Made by a program: the position numbers and the translations under genes. From a virus, in the IMG/VR virus record IMGVR_UViG_3300025282_000046, positions 1 through 52,044 of that record: a stretch of 52,044 bases of DNA; one strand, 5' to 3'. The notes under the pieces were generated by a model. That model did not search any database, had not been told where the DNA came from, and worked only from the letters and a program-made list of their open reading frames with translations. Positions 140 to 49,790 of this stretch are shown piece after piece (position 1 is the stretch's first letter; each line of letters begins with the position of its first letter).

Positions 140-1036
140 ATGACTCAAACACAGGATATAGCGGTAGGAAAAACAGGAGCCCAAAAGTTTAGTGGTTTAG
201 GTTTTTCAGGACAAAAGATGGTGCATCCACCGGGACAACTACTAGGATTACTAGTAGGAATGCCGGGGACAGGTAAATCATCTTTCTTACAATCAAACCC
301 CGATGCATTCATCATTAACACCGATGGAACATCTACAACAAACCCTAACCCACAAGCCTGTATATGGCCCGGAGTTACAGCATTTGGTGAACCAATGGAT
401 GTGGGTGGTGCTTCAATGGTTCTTACATGGGATGAGGTTCTCAAAAAGAAAGAACAACTAATTAAAATGGTAGGTTCTAATACACAGAGACCACAAACTA
501 TTGTACTTGATAGTCTTGGACCTTCAATTCAACTCATGAAAGACTATGTTACCAAGAAAGCAGGACGAGAGAACTGGAAAGATCTCGATGGTCGAAGAGC
601 ATGGGATGATGTCTATGATGGACTACTCCGATTTTCATTAGACCTCCGCAGACACGGCTATGGATTCTTCTATGTATGCCATCTCGTAAATGCAAAGATT
701 CCACTAGGTGATGACCGATATACTATCAGACCCGAACTCACAATAACCGATTCGTTCTATAAAAGACTGTTCCCGATGTTCGAACTCGTTGCAGCATTTG
801 AATCCGATTGGGTATCCGAATCAAAACAAATACAAATGAAAGGCATCGGAGGAAAACCCGGACCAAAGAAAACCGAAACCGTAAAAACACAAAAATATTA
901 TATGACAATTAACGATGAGGCCCTTGCGGGAATCACTAAATGTCGTGTACAATTACCCGACCGTATTGAACTTCCACAGGAGTCTGCGTGGACTTCATTC
1001 GAAGAACAATACTTAACCGCTCAAAAGAAGGATTAG
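140..1036 (+). CDS. Sak4-like / AAA_24 RecA-type recombination ATPase
   Basis: The protein has 298 residues. A Walker A motif GMPGTGKSS is seen at residues 40-48, and a Walker B-like strand (TIVLDSLG) lies about 75 residues later. This compact single-domain P-loop layout is typical of phage Sak4-like ATPases (AAA_24), RecA/RadA relatives thought to help single-strand annealing recombination with a phage SSB. The next gene downstream is an SSB-like DUF669 candidate, the usual partner. The start is supported by AGGAG eight bases upstream of the ATG. The family is inferred from the motif, size and neighbour; another phage P-loop ATPase is the main alternative. Confidence 0.72.
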   Translation: MTQTQDIAVGKTGAQKFSGLGFSGQKMVHPPGQLLGLLVGMPGTGKSSFLQSNPDAFIINTDGTSTTNPNPQACIWPGVTAFGEPMDVGGASMVLTWDEVLKKKEQLIKMVGSNTQRPQTIVLDSLGPSIQLMKDYVTKKAGRENWKDLDGRRAWDDVYDGLLRFSLDLRRHGYGFFYVCHLVNAKIPLGDDRYTIRPELTITDSFYKRLFPMFELVAAFESDWVSESKQIQMKGIGGKPGPKKTETVKTQKYYMTINDEALAGITKCRVQLPDRIELPQESAWTSFEEQYLTAQKKD

Positions 1037-1041
1037 CATCT

Positions 1042-1566
1042 ATGAGTATCAGTAACGAAACGAAGGCAGTCTTCGCACAAATTCAAAACGATTTCGAAGC
1101 CGCAAGCGCAGATCAAGGAATGGGATCATTAGGAGAATGGCCACCTAAAGGTGAACATGCTTGTTACGTTCTCGGAGTCAACGTACAAAATGGAACCTTC
1201 CGACAAACAGACGACAAGCAAGAATTTCCAGCGGTAACCGTACAATTCCATTATCAACTCTGTGAAGACCCAGACCGCACAGAACCATTGATCTGGAATG
1301 GTGCACCAATGACAATTCCTAACGATGCTTCGGTACTAACACACGAAGGTTCTCAAATCCGTGCCAAAATCGAACTAGGTAGATTAAAAGGACACCTCAA
1401 AACCATACTTGGTTATGAGCCAACAGACCTAGGTTCAGCATTTGAAGAAGTAGAAACCAAACTAAATGGTGACTCTACTATTGCATGTATGATTCGATGT
1501 AACTATACTGAACGAGGCACAACCACTTACAAAAGTGAGTACCTCCAAACACTACTTGGTGGTTAA
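1042..1566 (+). CDS. DUF669-like single-stranded DNA-binding protein candidate
   Basis: The protein has 174 residues from the ATG at 1042, which has AAGGA upstream. A GTG 54 bases earlier would put the start inside the ATPase gene and is less likely. The body is beta-rich, with an N-terminal acidic stretch, a central GEHACYVLGVNVQ strand and a C-terminal TTTYKSEYLQTLLGG, a pattern like DUF669-type proteins that sit beside Sak4-like ATPases and are believed to coat single-stranded DNA. It starts six bases after the ATPase stop, so co-translation is likely. The family assignment rests on size, position and general pattern, not on a diagnostic motif. Confidence 0.55.
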   Translation: MSISNETKAVFAQIQNDFEAASADQGMGSLGEWPPKGEHACYVLGVNVQNGTFRQTDDKQEFPAVTVQFHYQLCEDPDRTEPLIWNGAPMTIPNDASVLTHEGSQIRAKIELGRLKGHLKTILGYEPTDLGSAFEEVETKLNGDSTIACMIRCNYTERGTTTYKSEYLQTLLGG

Positions 1567-2163
1567 TAAATAGAACCCCCACTCTTAGGGCTCCCCGATT
1601 CTTCCCGATGACGGGAGCCCCATTTAGTAGGTACCTTCTGTAAGGTCATGTGCCTTTAGGCTGGGCTGAACTAATATAGACATTGTGCAGCCTACTCCAT
1701 CACTCCTTTGTTGCTCTTAGTTCATTCAATAGGTGTGACTCGACTAGTTATCGTCACCTATTGCAGAGGGTATCTACTAATTGAGGGGCATTTAATAGAT
1801 ACCTTATACGGCACCTATTAAGACGGTAGGTTAGGCGTTGCTTCCTAACTGAGAATCTTATTAACCCACAAAGGGGTGCCACAATCTAAGGGGAGTAGTA
1901 ATTTGAGCTGGAACTAGTGAAGCCTAATAAAACAGCCAGCATAGGCACGTTGCTACTCCCCACCAATCCACGCTTTAATAGCGGATCAAGAGCCTAGCGA
2001 GGTTGAATCTCCAATGAGGGGAAGGCTCTCCGCACCAATCTAATACCTGTGTCCCGTACCTAGGGACTGCAAAATGAACGCTCTGATGAATGACACCCCG
2101 CTGGATACAAGGGTGATTGGTAATCCAGGTTTAATTACCGGGAGGGTCAATGCCTAATAACAA

Positions 2164-2191
2164 TTCACTTCTTGTTCATCGCAGGTATAAT
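2164..2191 (+). promoter_or_regulatory. Candidate promoter inside the large RNA region
   Basis: TTCACT at 2164-2169 is followed after 16 bases by a perfect TATAAT at 2186-2191. It lies just before the GC-rich hairpin at 2198-2251 and would give a separate RNA of about 155 nt ending at the terminator at 2351. The similar pair TTCACA-16-TATAAT occurs at 50198-50225. The -35 box is weak, so this is tentative. Confidence 0.3.
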
Positions 2192-2318
2192 ATAATAGGG
2201 GTGGGCAGCTGGAGCATGCAGTTAAATAACTATAAACAGCTACCCCACCCCATAATTTATGTGTAACCACGGCTAGACGGGTTCACGGAGATAATCTTGG
2301 CATCTCCGGCACATATAG

Positions 2319-2351
2319 CCCTCACTAGTAGAGATATTAGTGGGGGTTTTT
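2319..2351 (+). terminator. Intrinsic terminator ending the large RNA
   Basis: CCCTCACTA (2319-2327) pairs with TAGTGGGGG (2338-2346, one wobble) around a 10-base loop and is followed by five T residues. It separates the RNA region from the SLOG-fusion gene at 2393. Its 3' arm contains one copy of the genome-wide AGTGGGGG motif and is also complementary to AACCCCCACT at 1574-1583. Confidence 0.8.
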
Positions 2352-2392: not shown

Positions 2393-3808
2393 ATGTCAAG
2401 ATATAGAGCCACTAAAGCAATGATCGAATCTCTTAAAGGATTAGATACATCTATCGCGGCACAGAGAGCCCGTGTCCATGCCGCTATGACATTTGAACCT
2501 AAATTACTCTACACGGCAGGGACAAACTTAAAGGGAATACACGGTAAAGGAGGGGCTTTATTTGCGAGGGAATCTTTTGGATTACCCTTAGGTAAATTTG
2601 AGGGTATCCACGGTAGAACCATAGCGGTACCCACAAGAACAGGACCTCCCATAACTACTTTACCAGCAGAAGAAATTAGACAATGGCTCTTAAAATATAG
2701 AAATACTATGCAATCAAACCCTGACAAGATTGCGTTGTTACCTCCTATTGGAATGGGTAATGCAGGTATAAAATCCGATGTAATGTTAGGAATGATGGAC
2801 GATGCGGGGCTAATGCAAATGGGAAAACAAATAGTACCCACAGCCGAGATGGTAGGCAAAGGATTCCCGGAAACCGCAGCACGTTTACGTCTAATTGAAG
2901 GAATGAAAAAAGCACAAGGAGGCACTATGCCTAAAGTTACTACATCGTTTGTGGGGCCTATGAGCTTCCCTATCATGGGAGCAAGAACCGTCAAATCAAG
3001 AACTACCTTTAATGCCATTACAGCAGGTGAACGAACCATGACAACACGCAAACTTGGACAAGGATGGGAGGATCTTAAAGTAGGAGATGTATTTCCTATT
3101 ACAGGTAAGGAGGGTCAAACCCAACTAATAAAAATTACACACGAACCTGTAATACATACTGTTACAGGTAAAGAATCACAGGCGTTTCTAAATAGATGGT
3201 CTCAACTTGAAGGTCATGGACCAGAACAATTCAATAGGATTTTTAAACCAGGACAAAAAATAACAATGGTTAAATATAAATTTGGAGGTAAATCAGTAAT
3301 ACATTCTGGGGGTGCAGATGGAGCAGATACTGTGTTCCAAAATGCTGCGTTAAAAAAAGGACATGAGGTACAAGCCCACTCTTTTGCAGGACATGCAAGA
3401 GGAAACAGTGCAAGAGTAGAACATTCTCTTGCAGAATTAAAAGAAGCAGATGTCTACCTTCACAAGGCCAATCAAACTCTTAAAAGAAGATTCCCGGCTA
3501 GTAATGAATATGTAAATAATCTTCTAAGAAGAAACCTATATCAAGTTAAAGATTCAGATCAAGTGATTGCAGCAGCACCTATTAAATATGGTCAGGTACA
3601 AGGAGGTACTGCATGGGCTACTCAAATGGGAATTGATATGGGTAAACCAGTATTCGTCTTTGATTTAAAAACAAACCAATGGATGAAGTGGGTAGGTAAT
3701 GCTTATGTTCCATCCTCAGCACCTTCTTTATCCGCAAGTTTCGCAGGTATAGGCTCTCGTAAAATAACAAAGGTGGGGGAAAAAGCTATAGAAGATCTAT
3801 TCACTTAA
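2393..3808 (+). CDS. Three-domain fusion: A1S_2505-like + ASCH-like + SLOG, with a broken second SLOG
   Basis: The protein has 471 residues, with GGAGG before the ATG. Residues 40-130 (GTNLKGIHGKGGALFARE, then IAVPTR and PPIGMGNAGI) resemble the small phage Rossmann-like A1S_2505 family. Residues about 201-290 (ITAGERTMTTRKLG, then LKVGDVF) look like an ASCH-type RNA/nucleotide-binding domain. Residues 300-432 begin VIHSGGADGADTVF and contain a QGGTAWATQMGIDMGKPVFVF segment, typical of the SLOG/DUF2493 (DprA-like) ligand-binding fold. After a linker the tail SFAGIGSRKIT (449-459) is the N-terminal strand and loop of another SLOG domain, cut off by a stop at 471. SLOG domains bind nucleotide-derived ligands. 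A role in nucleotide sensing or counter-defence is inference only. It directly follows the large RNA. Confidence 0.65.
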   Translation: MSRYRATKAMIESLKGLDTSIAAQRARVHAAMTFEPKLLYTAGTNLKGIHGKGGALFARESFGLPLGKFEGIHGRTIAVPTRTGPPITTLPAEEIRQWLLKYRNTMQSNPDKIALLPPIGMGNAGIKSDVMLGMMDDAGLMQMGKQIVPTAEMVGKGFPETAARLRLIEGMKKAQGGTMPKVTTSFVGPMSFPIMGARTVKSRTTFNAITAGERTMTTRKLGQGWEDLKVGDVFPITGKEGQTQLIKITHEPVIHTVTGKESQAFLNRWSQLEGHGPEQFNRIFKPGQKITMVKYKFGGKSVIHSGGADGADTVFQNAALKKGHEVQAHSFAGHARGNSARVEHSLAELKEADVYLHKANQTLKRRFPASNEYVNNLLRRNLYQVKDSDQVIAAAPIKYGQVQGGTAWATQMGIDMGKPVFVFDLKTNQWMKWVGNAYVPSSAPSLSASFAGIGSRKITKVGEKAIEDLFT

Positions 3809-6580: not shown

Positions 6581-7349
6581 CGAACAATTCTACGTGAGCA
6601 TCCCAATCTGAAGTAGAGGGTCTACGAGGTTCCGACAAGGAAGCCTCACCTCTAACAATAGCAGCACCCCACCCCGAAGAATCCTTACGATTCATATAGT
6701 CAGGATTGAGGGGTCCCATCGTACCCGCATTAGCGTAGTACCACGGCAGCTTTATTTTAAGGGTTCTCTTGCATTGTTCAACCCCCACTGTAGGTCTATG
6801 GGTATGACCCCTTATAAATAATCTATGGGCGTGACCGCCCGCCATCTGTGCCATTTGTATGGTTTCTAATTCATCGCTATTAATTCCCGAATCAAAGCCA
6901 TGATAAAAATGAACCTGCCCTAATTTATACATACCCTTTTTAGATTTTGTATAGGGTATCTGCTTCCACTTCGTAAAAAGTTCACCAAATTCATAATGCT
7001 TATTCCACGACAACAAGGAACGCAAACCCCGAGGAGAACGCCTCGGATCTTTGGCTAAAATATTATCGTCATGATTCCCATGAATCCAAATTAACTCAAC
7101 TTCCGGGGGCAATACAGCCATAATATCTGAGAGGTACCGATGACCCCGCTCGTACTCGTCCTCGAGAGCATGCTCGAACTCGTGAGGGTGAACCGAGACC
7201 GAACTCGCATCGAAGAGGTCACCAAGCATTATAAAATGAGTGGGGGAAGAGTCCGAGAGAGATGCAAGCATCCACTCCTTAGCCTCAAGATTTTCAAATG
7301 GTGTGTGTATACATGATATCGCTGCGAAAGTTGCTTTTATTGGTTCCAT
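6573..7349 (-). CDS. Calcineurin-like metallophosphoesterase
   Basis: The protein has 258 residues. The binuclear metallophosphoesterase motifs are visible: GDLFD (43-47), GNHDD (near 95), a His in FYHGFDSG, and GHTHR (near 180), then NAGTMGP. The usual first motif DxH is SCIH (12-15) here, with Cys in place of the metal-binding Asp. The family cleaves phosphomono- or diesters, including nucleic acids and cyclic nucleotides; the substrate is unknown. It overlaps the 1356-residue gene upstream by 13 bases and the ART-like gene downstream by 8, so it is co-expressed with virion genes, an unusual position for a phage phosphoesterase. Confidence 0.85.
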   Translation of the reverse strand: MEPIKATFAAISCIHTPFENLEAKEWMLASLSDSSPTHFIMLGDLFDASSVSVHPHEFEHALEDEYERGHRYLSDIMAVLPPEVELIWIHGNHDDNILAKDPRRSPRGLRSLLSWNKHYEFGELFTKWKQIPYTKSKKGMYKLGQVHFYHGFDSGINSDELETIQMAQMAGGHAHRLFIRGHTHRPTVGVEQCKRTLKIKLPWYYANAGTMGPLNPDYMNRKDSSGWGAAIVRGEASLSEPRRPSTSDWDAHVELFDG

Positions 7350-10300
7350 GTTTGAAACGGATTAAAACCCTGCTCCTCTATTGGTAGTTCCTGTTGTTCC
7401 TGTTTTTTCAAGTGTTTCTTAATCTCTTCGATAGTAGCAGGATCTAATTTAACAGGTGAAACCCTAGAGGCTCCTGCTTTAGTTCGTTGACCAGAAGTTT
7501 GACCCGCCAATACTTGCTCTTCGGTTTCTATACCTAGTCGTTTGTGTTCTTCAGCAAGAGTGCTTTGATATAGATGTTTGTATTCGGAAGGAATAGTATT
7601 GGCTATACGTTCTAACCGTGCAGTCTCAAGGTTACGCATCCTGCTACGCCATTGGGACTTAGAAATTTTCAGTGGAACATTAAACTTCTTCTTGAAGTCT
7701 GTCTCTATGCTTCGTGCTTTAGATATATTATTAGCAATCAAAGCATTCATATAATCACTTTCCATCTGTATAATTATCTCTCTTTGCTTTGCTAAGTAAC
7801 CATCTACCTCTCCCGCTTTAGGGTGGTTCTCTAAATCAATACCTAAACCCCTCATGACAATAGCAAAAGGTTTCTCGTAATTGACTAGTCTACCGTCTCC
7901 CGTAAACACAGGATGATGACCGTCAGGAGTAGTAGTGCTCCAATCAACATGAGTCTTTTGCATCTTACTAGCAAGGTCTGGTAAGAAAGGCGAATCTCCT
8001 AATTGAGGTAGCATACCCATTGCCCTTGTAAATGCTATCCCCCCCGGTACAAGACCAGGAATAGAAGACTTAGCAAATTCCATATCTCCCATGCCAACCT
8101 TTACCATATCTAAAGGAATCGCCACTACAGGTGGTACCCATCCACCCCCCATTACCTCAAAGATAGGATTAACCCCCACTCCCCTAGAAACATCCTTGTG
8201 TCCCATCTCTTTAAATACTTCGTATGCAAGTGATCCTGTGCCCATTACCCTCAAGAGGTCTGCTGTGTAGTGACCACCCCAAATTCTTTTTCCTCCTAAA
8301 AAGGGTACTCCCTCTTTGAAGTATCTATCAGGAGAAATTTGTTTACCTGTCCTAGCATAAGAAGTAAAAGATCTAGCCAAGAAACTTAGAAACTGACGAC
8401 CTAAAGCATTACCTACAAGACCACCGACGGGACCCTTACCTAAGAATGCAGAAGGCATGTTCATAGGTGTGCCACCAAACTGTGCTTCCTGTACAAATCT
8501 ACGGGTGTCTGTTAACCAATTAAAGAAGTTCATCTCGTCTTTGTCCCACACACCACGAGGACGCTTCATTATATTAACACCTGCTTTTCTATAAATTCTA
8601 TCTACAGTATGAGCAGACACGAGACGGTTCATAAGTTCAGCTTTCTCGAAGAGCTTCATGGGAAGGGTCATAGATAAGAAGTGACCCATCCCCTCCTTCT
8701 CTAAAGATTGAACACCTGCATAGGTAGCACCGTCAATGTTTGCAAATACATTTGGTTGTACCCCGAGAAGATCACCAAAATCATCAACGTGTTTGAAGTG
8801 TTTCTTCATTAACTCAGCACGTTTAGCATCAGAAATTCTCAAGCCTAATGGATATCTTTCTTTTGCATACGACATTATTTCTTTGAATGCTGATTTGTAA
8901 GCGGGGAGTACATTATTAAGACCACCCCACATGGCAGCATGCAATAAAGGTTGCATCATGTTGAGCATAACACTCATCATATTTGCACCAAGGAAACCCA
9001 CATAAAGACCCTTAGCCATTGAACCACTAAGACTCTCGTAAGTAGACATGTTCCTAAGATTACTAATAAACTCTTTACCGTGAGAACCCCAACCCTCAAT
9101 TGTTTTTCCTATTCTTCCGTTAGCAAAAGCATTAACCGTCTCATGAGTTCTAATTTGTAGGCCCCTCATTACACCATGTTCAGGAATTCTACGACTAGAA
9201 ATATGTGGAAGAATGGTTTCCTTAAATAAATCGGCACTGTATCTATTATTCATCGCGGCATATTGGTGGGTCATTACATCTCCCAATGTAACACCTCCCG
9301 ATGGTCCTGGTGCTTTACCTCTAACTATGTCCTCAAGAGTAGTAGACATATCCACACGTTGAAATTCTTTTACAGTAGCTTGAGGTGCACTTGATGATTT
9401 TGTTAGAATGTTACTATCTCTCATACTAGTATTCATATTAAAGATATCGTCCATAGTAGAACCGCCACCCGCAGGTAATCCACCCTTACGGATACGATGA
9501 TCCGCTGCAACAATCTCCATCCAAATCTTAGGGTCAGCAACCATCCCATTACCTGCTGGATTTCTAACAGCCTCAACATCATCGTATATTTTGTGAGGAA
9601 TATTACGGCTATAAATTTCAGAGGTATCCTTCATATACCTACCGTGACTTGTTACACCATCAAGCGTATACGAATAAGTAGCGACCCCACTATCGGAGTT
9701 CCTTACAATCTTTTTCTTAGCACTACGAAGACCCGACCTTAAAAGATTAGCGGTTTCACCAGAACCACCATGTAGATTGTTCATTTCCATTAACCACTCG
9801 TAATCTTCAGGGTGATAATTTCTAGATGCAGATGCTCTAGGTGCAAGTCTATTTAAACTCGAAAGGTTCTCAGCACCCGCTATACCTTGAGACCTCATCA
9901 CACCCATGTCTCTACCACCATAATGTATACCTGTATACGGGCTTATCATTGCGGTATCTTTAAAGGTATTACGAGGAGCATAAGTACCGTTCTTGTAATA
10001 AGAATTAACTGTTCCCCTAATCATCTCCTTGAACAATTCTTTCTTCCTACCTACTGACAAACCAACAGTTGAAGAAGCAAACTCGTCCATGGGAAGAAGA
10101 GTTCTAAGGAAGTCCATACCTTCAGCAGATTCCCATAATTGAGCGGCTTTACCCTTACTAGGATCTACCGCTGAAATAATTGTTTCGAGTTTGTCATCAT
10201 CAAATATAAATTGTCTTTCACCTTTTGCATTCCGGAAGCCACCAGAACTGTAAGCAAGATCATCCCCAAAAAGCATAACCGCCCTATGATTATATGATGC

Positions 10301-43490: not shown

Positions 43491-43850
43491 ATACCCGGAT
43501 CGGAAGTGGATCGCCCCTATTTTTAGCCTAAAAAGGGACATGAAAAAAATGAGATTTTGAAGATTCGAAGGGTTGTGTTAATTTGGGGGGTTTACGGTTG
43601 GGTGAGGTGAGGAAAATTGTATATAGGGTGAGGAATTCCTAGACAGGATCGGTGTTTCGTAATGACCACAGGCAAACACCTAGGGGGCTTCGGGGGTACC
43701 CAAGTTTACGTCGGGAAGGGGACACGGAAGGAACGCTACGCTGTGGACTCACGTATTTCGTCACTGAAGTGACGAGGAACGGGAACTCGGGAACCACAAA
43801 CCACAACTAACTACACACGGAGTCAGACTATTACCTTGTTTTAAGAAGGA
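43491..43850. other. Gene-free stretch with hairpins
   Basis: I find no gene in this stretch. It is G-rich until about 43740 and C/A-rich after it. Local hairpins: GGTGTTT (43651-43657) with AAACACC (43674-43680), and CGTCAC (43759-43764) with GTGACG (43769-43774) around TGAA. A run of GGTGAGG units occurs near 43600-43632. It may be part of an origin or a transcript leader. Confidence 0.4.
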
Positions 43851-43852
43851 CA

Positions 43853-43936
43853 TTTCGCATCACCATACTTGCTCCTTCATCGGGGCAAGCCCTCTTCGGA
43901 GCGGTGATGCAACAGTCGGGTTCGGGTATATTTTTT
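43853..43936 (+). ncRNA. Structured RNA motif, copy 1
   Basis: TTTCG is followed by stem P1 GCATCACC (43857-43864) with GGTGATGC (43903-43910), an ATACT internal segment, a hairpin CTTGCTCC/GGGGCAAG (43868-43875/43882-43889), a UUCG hairpin CTC-TTCG-GAG (43892-43901), then the conserved tail AACAGTCG and a T-run at 43931-43936. Two other copies keep the flanks while P1 changes with compensation. Function unknown; likely cis-regulatory or a processing signal. Confidence 0.6.
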
Positions 43937-43944
43937 GATTTTAC

Positions 43945-44047
43945 AGTCCAAATCTGCTAGTAAGACCACAATCTACACGCTCTTGATTGAGAGTAGATGC
44001 GAACATTCACTAATTCGTTAGAGTGGCAAAGATTTAGACTTTTATTT
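43945..44047 (+). ncRNA. Candidate three-way-junction RNA
   Basis: AGTCCAAATCT (43945-43955) pairs with AGATTTAGACT (44030-44040) with one mismatch, and is followed by TTTTATTT. It encloses two hairpins: ATCTAC…CTCT/AGAG…TAGAT (43971-43997) and CTAA-TTCG-TTAG (44010-44021). No tRNA fold fits. It lies between motif copy 1 and the terminator at 44124-44199. Confidence 0.4.
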
Positions 44048-44123
44048 ACGCATGACATATGCATGCACCAAACTGACCTAAACACGTCAGTAGTTGAGTA
44101 ACCAGTCTCATCAAACTGTTTTT

Positions 44124-44199
44124 AAGGGGTAGATACAACAAGGTGAAAAACAACACATTTTAAGTGATTACAGCACTCTTCGTATCTACCCTTTTTTTT
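44124..44199 (+). terminator. Strong terminator-like hairpin
   Basis: GGGTAGATAC (44127-44136) pairs with GTATCTACCC (44182-44191), extendable to 13 bp, followed by eight T residues. The 45-base loop is long. It ends any transcript from the region of motif copy 1 and isolates motif copy 2, whose P1 begins 11 bases after it. Confidence 0.7.
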
Positions 44200-44206
44200 A
44201 TAATGA

Positions 44207-44297
44207 TTTCGCACAACCATACAGGTCTCGACTGCGGGTAAGACCTTGTCTTCGACGGTTGTGCAACAGTTGTTATTGGGTGAATTTTTTGTTTTTT
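44207..44297 (+). ncRNA. Structured RNA motif, copy 2, leader of the 80-residue gene
   Basis: P1 GCACAACC (44211-44218) pairs with GGTTGTGC (44257-44264); then ATACA, a hairpin AGGTCT/AGACCT (44223-44228/44241-44246), a GTC-TTC-GAC mini-hairpin (44248-44256), the tail AACAGTTG (44265-44272), and two T-runs at 44285-44298. The sequence keeps the flank TTTCG and tail AACAGT of copy 1. It sits in the leader, about 60 bases before the ATG at 44328. Confidence 0.65.
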
Positions 44298-44327
44298 TAT
44301 CATAATCTAATCTAAAGGAGTATTATT

Positions 44328-45440: not shown

Positions 45441-45959
45441 CCCCTAAACACACCTCGGCAAGTGTCTAAACTGCCCTTTGGGGAAGGTAAAACAAATAAC
45501 TAGAATTTTATATTCTTAACAAATAAAGGCTGACGAGCCTGTGGGTGGCTGAATAATCACTTGGAAAGGTGATAAAGCACACATTAGTCTGTAGTAGACT
45601 GTCCAACGACCAAGTGGTAAAGGACATACTCCTAACCGAGTTTGATGTGATATTCTGGCGATAATACAAATAGTATTTCCCTCTGGAATTGCAGGTAAAC
45701 TTTATCCTGCCCCACACCATATTTGACCTGAACAAGTCTCTAAACTATTCACTTTTGGCGTGTGAAATGAACGCTCGAAGACTCGCTATCATCTTTCACT
45801 CGCGGACTCGGACAACACCGAACTCACATCCAAACAAACGGGTAACACTCCGTAAACCAGAAATTGTTATCTACATCAATTCATAACGATCCAAACCCAA
45901 CTACCCTCGAAAACACAAAGTCCAAATCAACCCCAAACCAAGTTCAAAGGAGAACAACA
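45441..45959 (+). other. Gene-free stretch with likely RNA structure
   Basis: I find no convincing gene in these 519 bases. A 14-base element CAAGTGTCTAAACT (45459) recurs with one change at 45733. Local pairings: GGCT/AGCC (45529-45538), ATCAC/GTGAT (45557-45575), AGTCT/AGACT (45586-45600), and CACTTGG (45559-45565) with CCAAGTG (45611-45618), which encloses the previous stem; GCAGG/CCTGC near 45690-45710. This suggests a folded RNA. Not identified. Confidence 0.4.
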
Positions 45960-48744: not shown

Positions 48745-48975
48745 ATGACAAAGGAACAAAAATATCAATTGTGTAAATTGATAAAAAACTTACAAGGTAA
48801 CCTTATAAAGTTACATGCAAACGGAACAACCGGAACTATTATGGATGAGTCTTTAGATATACTCAACCAATTAGTAGGTTGGCTCGTAATCTCAGGCATC
48901 GAGAAAGAATACAATGAAAAACTCGATGAACAAGCAGCAATATCAGAACACGAAAATTGGAGACAGAACTCATGA
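48745..48975 (+). CDS. Hypothetical small protein
   Basis: The protein has 76 residues, with AAAGGA before the ATG. Helical (CKLIKNLQGNLIKLHANGTT). Stop overlaps the start of the DUF932-like gene (ATGA), so coupled. No family recognised. Confidence 0.55.
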   Translation: MTKEQKYQLCKLIKNLQGNLIKLHANGTTGTIMDESLDILNQLVGWLVISGIEKEYNEKLDEQAAISEHENWRQNS

Positions 48976-49790
48976 AACGTCACAACTGTAATGAATACGT
49001 AGAGTATGAAGACCTCGCAACCATACCTCTACCACCAGCAAGAGATAGATTCGTGCCTATGGCACATCAAGACCTATTCGATAGAACAGTAAAGAACCTA
49101 TCAACACTAAACTACGAACCCGTAAAACCTAGGTTCTTACTTGACCACACAAAACAAAAGTTTATAGCCACATTTGGTATTAAACAAAGTGCAAAGGCAT
49201 TTAGTAGTGGATCTGTAGATCAATTTGCAAACAATGACTATCAATTTGAAGTAGGTCTAATAAATAGTAATGATGGCAGCATGGCAGCCAAACTATTCAC
49301 AGGTACCCGTGTATTCGTGTGTGCCAACGGTCAATGGTCGGGTGAAGTAGTTCTCTCCCGTAAACACACTCGTAACGCAGGTTACGACATCAACCGCGGA
49401 CTCCGAGACTTCGTATTCGAACTCGAAGACACTCGCAAAGAAACCTTTGCAAACTTTGATAGACTTAAAGAATATGACTTTGGTAGTAAATCAGAAGTTC
49501 ATGATTTTATAGTTGAAACTTGCAATCGAAATATCCTTCCTTGGCAACACGCACCTAAAGTACTTGAACACTGGAATAATCCAGAACATGACGAATTTAA
49601 AGACCGCAATGGATATTGTTTATTCAACGCATATACATCACATTGGAGAGATGCTAATCAATTCTCTCTATCAGACAAAACAAAAAGATTAAGGAGTTAC
49701 ATCGATGAGTTCAAACAACCACAATACGTTGGATCAGCTGAACAAAGATTTGAAGAATCACCAAGATCAAATGGAATATCACCGTGGTGA
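48972..49790 (+). CDS. DUF932-like phage protein
   Basis: The protein has 272 residues from the ATG in the ATGA overlap. The middle GLINSNDGSMAAKLFTGTRV, then FVCANGQWSGEV, matches the DUF932 family (large phage and plasmid proteins, C-N-G loop), often near replication genes and believed to act in DNA metabolism. Ends inside the start of the next gene (86-base overlap). Confidence 0.65.
   Translation: MKRHNCNEYVEYEDLATIPLPPARDRFVPMAHQDLFDRTVKNLSTLNYEPVKPRFLLDHTKQKFIATFGIKQSAKAFSSGSVDQFANNDYQFEVGLINSNDGSMAAKLFTGTRVFVCANGQWSGEVVLSRKHTRNAGYDINRGLRDFVFELEDTRKETFANFDRLKEYDFGSKSEVHDFIVETCNRNILPWQHAPKVLEHWNNPEHDEFKDRNGYCLFNAYTSHWRDANQFSLSDKTKRLRSYIDEFKQPQYVGSAEQRFEESPRSNGISPW

What the first reader, a model, noticed from the sequence alone, without database searches (positions are those of the whole stretch)
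1574..2351. 765-nt gene-free, highly structured RNA ending in a terminator
The stretch has at least 12 clear stems (up to 12 bp), nested junctions, an H-type pseudoknot and a strong terminator, but no open gene. Size, density and phage location recall the giant RNAs GOLLD and ROOL, which form cage-like multimers, yet no tRNA is present and I cannot align either class. It sits directly before a SLOG-fusion gene. It may be a new class.
Basis: partly seen in the sequence, partly recalled or inferred. Interest (0 to 1): 0.9.

Follow-up and report, generated by a model that had tools for sequence, protein, structure and literature searches.

The report
Shuffled RNA domain array in phages
Next to a phage gene lies a roughly 770-letter non-coding RNA built from separate folded domains strung on a short repeated linker, and the same domains recur, reordered and nested, in phages that share almost no genes with this one, so these viruses appear to mix and match RNA parts for a still unknown purpose.

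Summary
Window 1574-2351 is gene-free (19-29 stops per frame), folds better than shuffles (z about -4), ends in a terminator-like hairpin, and has no Rfam, tRNA or GenBank-phage match. Relatives show it is not one giant fold but a mosaic array. Structured domains (about 30 recurring types; the window has a 5' hairpin and at least seven domains) are separated by a single-stranded linker, ACAATCTA (48 copies on the RNA strand of 14.3 kb of arrays, none on the other strand). The same domains occur in different orders and numbers, nested in different stems, in 28 arrays from the window's phage lineage and from a second lineage with a T7-like RNA polymerase and almost no shared proteins; 378 nt are 93% identical between the two. 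A domain plus exactly one linker is gained or lost (L054 vs L065). Outer helices covary, and G-U exceeds A-C 18:3, indicating RNA on the + strand. GOLLD/ROOL membership is not supported. Best guess (inferred): a trans-acting phage RNA whose interchangeable domains each bind a host or phage target, exchanged between co-infecting phages. That it is a modular ncRNA is about 90% likely; the effector/decoy role about 35%.

The parts
1574..1583 (+). 5' strand AACCCCCACT of a possible closing helix with 2339-2348; also conserved in a relative (L018) that lacks the array
   Evidence: sequence
1588..1621 (+). conserved 5' hairpin GGGCTCCC..GGGAGCCC that starts nearly every array of the window's lineage
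1622..1784 (+). M1 domain: stem TTTAGTAGGTACC / GGTATCTACTAA whose inner insert is exchanged between relatives (here insert w, shared with L012 and L022; L016 has domain a, L017 has u, L047 has t in the same stem)
1810..1880 (+). domain l, outer helix GGCACC/GGTGCC; GACACC/GGTGTC in lineage B (L028)
1881..1888 (+). linker ACAATCTA
   Evidence: predicted unpaired probability 0.9
1890..1961 (+). domain g: outer helix GGGGAGTAGTAA/TTGCTACTCCCC enclosing an H-type pseudoknot; same domain in lineage B contig L079
1962..1968 (+). linker variant ACCAATC
1969..2033 (+). domain f (AATAGCGGATCAAGAGCC..GGCTCTCCGC), shared with L011, L022, L030, L053, L055, L061, L079
2034..2043 (+). linker variant ACCAATCTAA
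2044..2187 (+). domain x, outer helix TACCTG/CAGGTA; in L079 an inner stem CACCC/GGGTG is CACTC/GAGTG with a replaced loop
2188..2197 (+). linker variant (TAATATAATA)
2198..2251 (+). domain a (GGGGTGGG outer helix around GCTGGAGCATGCAGTTAAATA..); its core sits inside the M1 stem in L016 and lies at or near the 3' end of several lineage-B arrays
2258..2315 (+). domain c, covariance model R1 (77.7 bits); outer helix with 5 of 6 pairs changed on both sides among 7 distinct copies
2317..2351 (+). terminator-like hairpin plus TTTTT
   Evidence: not listed by the scan

Best explanation
Shown by sequence analysis: the region encodes a long non-coding RNA, read on the + strand, made of autonomous structured domains (hairpins, junctions, pseudoknots) like beads on a string, joined by an unpaired ACAAUCUA linker. 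Domains come from a shared library; they are gained, lost, reordered and nested inside one another's stems, and are exchanged between phage lineages with unrelated core genes. Inferred: the RNA is made in the early/replication part of infection, acts in trans, and its domains bind different host or phage molecules (decoys or inhibitors of host factors or defences), so that recombination at linker repeats and stem boundaries lets co-infecting phages recombine their set of RNA effectors. Confidence: modular, selected ncRNA about 0.9; exchange between phages with recombination favoured at linkers about 0.8; trans-acting effector/decoy function about 0.35. The number below is for the statement as a whole.
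For: Relatives found by the neighbouring Sak4-like protein carry gene-free gaps in the same place with pieces of the window RNA in other orders. The same modules occur in phages without the window's terminase (no match in nine lineage-B or unplaced records) and with almost no shared proteins (module finds). Window versus lineage-B L079: 93.4% over 378 nt, covering the run g-f-x-a. L054 versus L065: at least 99% identical on both sides of exactly one missing domain h plus one linker, the flanking matches overlapping in the 9-nt linker. Linker: 48 on the + strand, 0 on the -, against 0.25 expected; predicted unpaired 0.77 versus 0.42 overall. Segments between linkers start and end with a helix of at least 6 bp in 56% versus 7.5% at random places. 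Match breakpoints fall within 8 nt of a linker in 28.5% versus 9.1%. Covariation: domain c score 0.337 versus 0.169, 0/500; domain h 0.137 versus 0.083, 0/500, all 260 cells paired; pseudoknot domain b arms pair 4/4 within copies versus 2.3 across copies. G-U:A-C 18:3 under symmetric scoring. In lineage B the array lies just upstream of a T7-like RNA polymerase operon (PF00940); from general knowledge of T7, that is the early region where host-takeover and anti-restriction genes sit.
Against: No expression data and no bound partner. Effector/decoy is an inference from exchange pattern and location only; nothing links any module to a known target. Few distinct copies per domain (7-10), so covariation is significant but not deep, and related sequences inflate the shuffle control. 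The global folding z-score of most other arrays is only about -1 to -2. In some lineage-B arrays the next gene follows with only a ribosome-binding site, so a cis role there is possible.
Confidence: 0.4

Rival explanations
1. Architectural RNA: the array is an RNA-only (or RNA-protein) scaffold or particle of the GOLLD/ROOL sort, and the modules are exchangeable peripheral domains of it.
For: Size, ornate folds, phage location; GOLLD and ROOL form homo-oligomeric nanocages and contain variable linkers (PMC12286853). A closing helix AACCCCCACT/AGTGGGGGTT is possible in the window and about four relatives.
Against: No core fold common to all arrays: the most frequent element (i) is missing from the window; length runs from under 300 to over 900 nt and domain number and order change, which does not suit a closed symmetric particle; no GOLLD/ROOL match.
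Confidence: 0.2
2. Processed array: the linkers are cut by a host RNase and the modules are released as separate small RNAs, each acting on its own.
For: Linkers are short, recurrent and predicted single-stranded; most segments have their own closing helix.
Against: Nested modules cannot be freed by linker cleavage; the linker is not a clear match to the RNase E consensus (from memory, not tested).
Confidence: 0.15
3. Cis-regulatory leader: tandem aptamers or attenuators that control the next gene.
For: In L054, L057, L066, L067 the array runs up to the ribosome-binding site of the next ORF; the window array ends in a terminator-like hairpin before the SLOG gene.
Against: In L026, L028, L053, L055, L061, L079 a near-consensus TTGACA..TATAAT promoter lies between array and next gene (read from sequence); downstream genes differ while modules stay the same; no riboswitch match in Rfam.
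Confidence: 0.1
4. DNA-level element: modules are mobile DNA cassettes (attC-like hairpins or MITE-like repeats) and the structure serves single-stranded DNA recombination.
For: Precise cassette gain and loss at a repeated linker; breakpoints near linkers.
Against: G-U pairs are favoured over A-C 18:3, expected for RNA but not for DNA hairpins; fixed orientation relative to genes; inner cores conserved with covarying stems; no recombinase among the window proteins scanned.
Confidence: 0.08
5. Chance structure in a junk intergenic region.
For: Some arrays fold only slightly better than random sequence of the same dinucleotide content.
Against: Covariation, linker statistics and 93% identity between lineages without shared core proteins.
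Confidence: 0.02

Closest known systems
GOLLD RNA
   Same: Large ornate non-coding RNA of phages and prophages with pseudoknots; one part less conserved than the rest; tRNAs can sit in its variable linker (PMC12286853)
   Different: No Rfam match; no universally conserved 3' region (array 3' ends differ); no tRNA beside the window array; domains reorder and nest, separated by ACAATCTA
ROOL RNA
   Same: About 660 nt, dense structure, phage/prophage location, unknown function (PMC12286853)
   Different: No Rfam match; no single conserved fold; variable domain composition
Tandem riboswitch / aptamer leaders
   Same: Independent structured domains in series joined by linkers
   Different: Many unrelated domain types, nested exchange, no match to known aptamers, in part separated from the next gene by its own promoter
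Integron cassette arrays (attC) and repeat-bounded cassettes
   Same: Series of exchangeable units bounded by a repeated short sequence; precise unit gain and loss
   Different: Units are non-coding RNA domains about 50-180 nt long, with RNA-type covariation, no integrase seen; from general knowledge the attC core sites differ from ACAATCTA (not tested)

Membership tests
GOLLD | Match to the Rfam covariance model | tested here: not met
   cmscan of all Rfam 15 models: nothing in 1500-2450 except a snoRNA chance hit at E=3; nothing relevant in 57.6 kb of related loci
GOLLD | Conserved 3' region with variable 5' region | tested here: not met
   Arrays of the window's lineage share the 5' end, not the 3' end
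GOLLD | Often near or containing tRNAs | tested here: not met
   ARAGORN finds none in the window or in 24 related loci; only L030 has a tmRNA-type tRNA-like domain next to its array
GOLLD | Forms a homo-oligomeric RNA cage | not testable with these tools
   needs cryo-EM or mass photometry
ROOL | Match to the Rfam covariance model | tested here: not met
ROOL | Single conserved complex fold | tested here: not met
   Domain content and order differ among the arrays
Known riboswitch or ribozyme class (any in Rfam 15) | Covariance model match of any module | tested here: not met
   the search works, since it finds a manA RNA elsewhere in the window
Protein-coding gene | Conserved open frame | tested here: not met
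   module-scale rearrangement without frame
Modular phage RNA array (defined here) | Two or more covarying domains separated by ACAATCTA-type linkers | tested here: met
Modular phage RNA array (defined here) | Transcribed as one RNA | not testable with these tools
   no transcriptome available

The most novel reading that the evidence does not exclude
Phages of different lineages share a combinatorial library of autonomous RNA effector domains, assembled into long non-coding RNAs by recombination at linkers and stems, each domain binding or inhibiting a different host or defence target: an RNA counterpart of protein anti-defence islands.
Probability: 0.3. Interest if true: 0.95.

Novelty: categorically new. 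Interest (0 to 1): 0.82.

Why it matters
Large structured phage RNAs are known as families with one conserved architecture. Here structured RNA evolves the way modular proteins or cassette arrays do: domains are swapped whole, inserted into each other's stems and passed between phages that share almost no proteins. If each domain is functional, this is a ready-made parts list of some 30 unknown natural RNA motifs, several with strong sequence conservation, and a direct way to ask which host molecules phages attack with RNA. It also gives a test case for how new large RNAs arise.

Tried and rejected
GenBank phages: no blastn match for the window array (only 31-nt chance hits, E=3) or for two lineage-B arrays. 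GTDB genomes: two exact-pattern scans (core i plus linker, core h) found nothing, so no host is identified. Search with the SLOG protein gave only near-identical contigs. The 15-base pattern CATTTAGTAGGTACC also hit unrelated coding sequences in about ten contigs, which were discarded after reading. L082 in the last scan is a chance coding hit. A CsrA-sponge reading (GGA motifs such as AAGCAGGAT in domain b) was dropped because the motif varies with its pseudoknot partner (AAGCGGGAT in L022). DUF932 as RNA partner: it is present in the window, in three further lineage-A records and in six lineage-B records, but also in L018, which has no array; the AlphaFold model was poor (pLDDT 44), no PDB relative, no paper found linking DUF932 to RNA; left open. 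A first shuffling script timed out. MAFFT misaligned domain b and most of domain x, so domain b was counted by hand-placed arms. Caution: row 2 of alignment A8 was given a linker tail that its source (L012) does not have; the counted pairs lie outside it.

Full report
What was checked. The window is a 52,044-base IMG/VR virus record with a Sak4-like annealing protein, a D5-type primase and a TerL. Between the gene ending at 1566 and the SLOG/DprA-like gene starting at 2393 there is no ORF of 60 aa or more; all three + frames are full of stops. The stretch folds better than shuffles on either strand (z about -4), has no Rfam match, no tRNA and no relative in 50,697 GenBank phage records.

What relatives show. 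A search with the Sak4-like protein gave 19 loci, 76-100% identical in protein. Most complete ones have a gene-free gap after the same gene (the one at window 988-1566), 400-770 nt long; two more distant ones (L018, L019) have only 79 nt, which still keeps the 5' GACCCCCACTC..hairpin. The gaps are not simply homologous end to end: they share a 5' hairpin and an M1 stem (TTTAGTAGGTACC/GGTATCTACTAA), then pieces in different order. The insert of the M1 stem differs: w in the window, L012 and L022; a in L016; u in L017; t in L047. The core of domain a, inside M1 in L016, is a free-standing domain near the 3' end of the window array.

A second, unrelated home for the modules. Exact searches with module cores (c, h, l, i, a) found the same domains in a second phage lineage, where the array lies directly after a DUF932 gene and before a small ORF and an 813-831-aa T7-like RNA polymerase (PF00940 and PF06067 tested on L067; DUF932 confirmed in six such records; in the others the polymerase is recognised by ORF length and place only). 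The window TerL has no match in nine lineage-B or unplaced records (two lineage-A records match at 80-82%, a third is a fragment), and comparison of all window ORFs with two long lineage-B records finds one 57-aa protein at 55% and one weak 163-residue match. Yet window array positions 326-694 (about 1892-2260 in the window) are 93.4% identical over 378 aligned nt to lineage-B contig L079, covering domains g-f-x-a in the same order. A further array (L068) belongs to the window's lineage by TerL but sits at a different genomic site; L025 is not placed.

Grammar of the arrays. A linker, ACAATCTA with variants (ACAATTTA, ACAATATA, ACCAATC), separates domains: 48 exact copies on the RNA strand and none on the other in 14,275 nt, 0.25 expected after shuffling, 9 in 259 kb outside arrays on the same contigs. 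It is predicted single-stranded (0.77 against 0.42 for all positions). Segments cut out between linkers begin and end with a helix of 6 bp or more in 56% against 7.5% for random placement. Ends of local matches between arrays fall within 8 nt of a linker in 28.5% of 397 clustered cases against 9.1% (maximum of 1000 random sets 13.9%). The cleanest event is L054 against L065: at least 99% identical on both flanks, differing by exactly domain h plus one linker, the two flanking matches overlapping by the 9-nt linker. Domains also nest: p sits in the loop of r in L067, in the leader of i in L028, L047 and L057, and free in L068. With a hand-made set of 30 core patterns most arrays give different strings; the window reads 5-M1-l-linker-g-f-linker-x-a-c, followed by the terminator (some linker variants and degenerate cores are below the patterns' tolerance).

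RNA, and which strand. Domain c: 7 distinct copies, outer helix with 5 of 6 pairs changed on both sides, 98% of cells paired, covariation 0.337 against 0.169 shuffled (0/500), slid structures at most 54% paired. Domain h: 10 distinct copies, 26 pairs including a 6-bp pseudoknot, 100% paired, covariation 0.137 against 0.083 (0/500), three pairs changed on both sides. Anchor hairpin of domain i: all pairs kept, two double changes. Domain b: H-type pseudoknot with varying first stem, 4/4 pairs within copies against 2.3 of 4 across copies. Under a scoring that treats G-U and A-C alike, outer helices hold 18 G-U and 3 A-C (p = 0.0015). This favours RNA read in the direction of the neighbouring genes and speaks against a DNA hairpin function.

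How it may work. Shown: an array of selected, structured, exchangeable RNA domains. Inferred: it is transcribed with the surrounding early/replication genes and, in the window, ended by the hairpin at 2317-2351. Inferred: the domains act independently, because they survive in new contexts with only their outer stems adapted. Inferred: since the next gene differs between arrays, and in several lineage-B contigs a near-consensus promoter follows the array (read), the RNA more likely acts in trans. In lineage B the array lies just ahead of the RNA polymerase gene, the early region of T7-like phages (general knowledge), where takeover and anti-restriction functions lie. Together with transfer between phages that share little else, this makes an effector or decoy role the leading guess, at about one in three. 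An RNA particle, processed small RNAs, and a leader role remain open.

Comparison with the known. GOLLD and ROOL are the obvious neighbours (PMC12286853). Their Rfam models do not match; GOLLD's conserved 3' region and tRNA neighbourhood are absent; cage formation could not be tested. I found no paper describing such arrays in the held library, which lacks most subscription journals and preprints. I call the arrangement categorically new because no RNA class known to me is built from reordered and nested domains on a repeated linker; a cautious reader may call it a new kind of large ornate phage RNA.

Limits. Copies per domain are few, contigs are metagenomic, hosts are unknown (no hit in GTDB genomes), module definitions are by eye and regular expression, and covariance-model E-values are rough. 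No expression evidence exists here.

Noticed in passing
window 43527-44327: A second gene-free, structured region: two related hairpins (CGCATCACC..GGTGATGCAACAG and CGCACAACC..GGTTGTGCAACAG, stems differing compensatorily) and a terminator-like GGGGTAGATAC..GTATCTACCCTTTTTTTT. No Rfam match. Different from the array.
   Followed up: partly
window 45528-45720: A manA RNA (RF01745, 73.8 bits, above its gathering score), about 1 kb from that second region.
   Followed up: no
L030 2221-2302 (- strand): Directly 3' of the array a tmRNA match (RF00023, 51.8 bits) that holds only the tRNA-like domain, no tag region; the acceptor stem reads GGGGCCG/CGGCTCC with a G3-U pair as in alanine tRNA-like domains.
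   Followed up: partly
window 48957-49790; also in G001-G006, G008-G010: A DUF932 protein is present in the window and in nine of twelve array-bearing records tested, directly upstream of the array in lineage B; in array-less L018 a DUF932 gene takes the array's place.
   Followed up: partly
L068 about 6950-7480 (reverse orientation): An array in the window's phage lineage at a different genomic site, between homologues of other genes.
   Followed up: partly
window 2393-3808; L013 7950-9164: SLOG-type protein with an N-terminal phrog_2072-like part; L013 has a related protein (72% over residues 3-173) whose C-terminal part matches cpYpsA, also directly after its array.
   Followed up: no
L047 40-760: Two M1 stems in tandem with different inserts, the only such duplication seen.
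   Followed up: no
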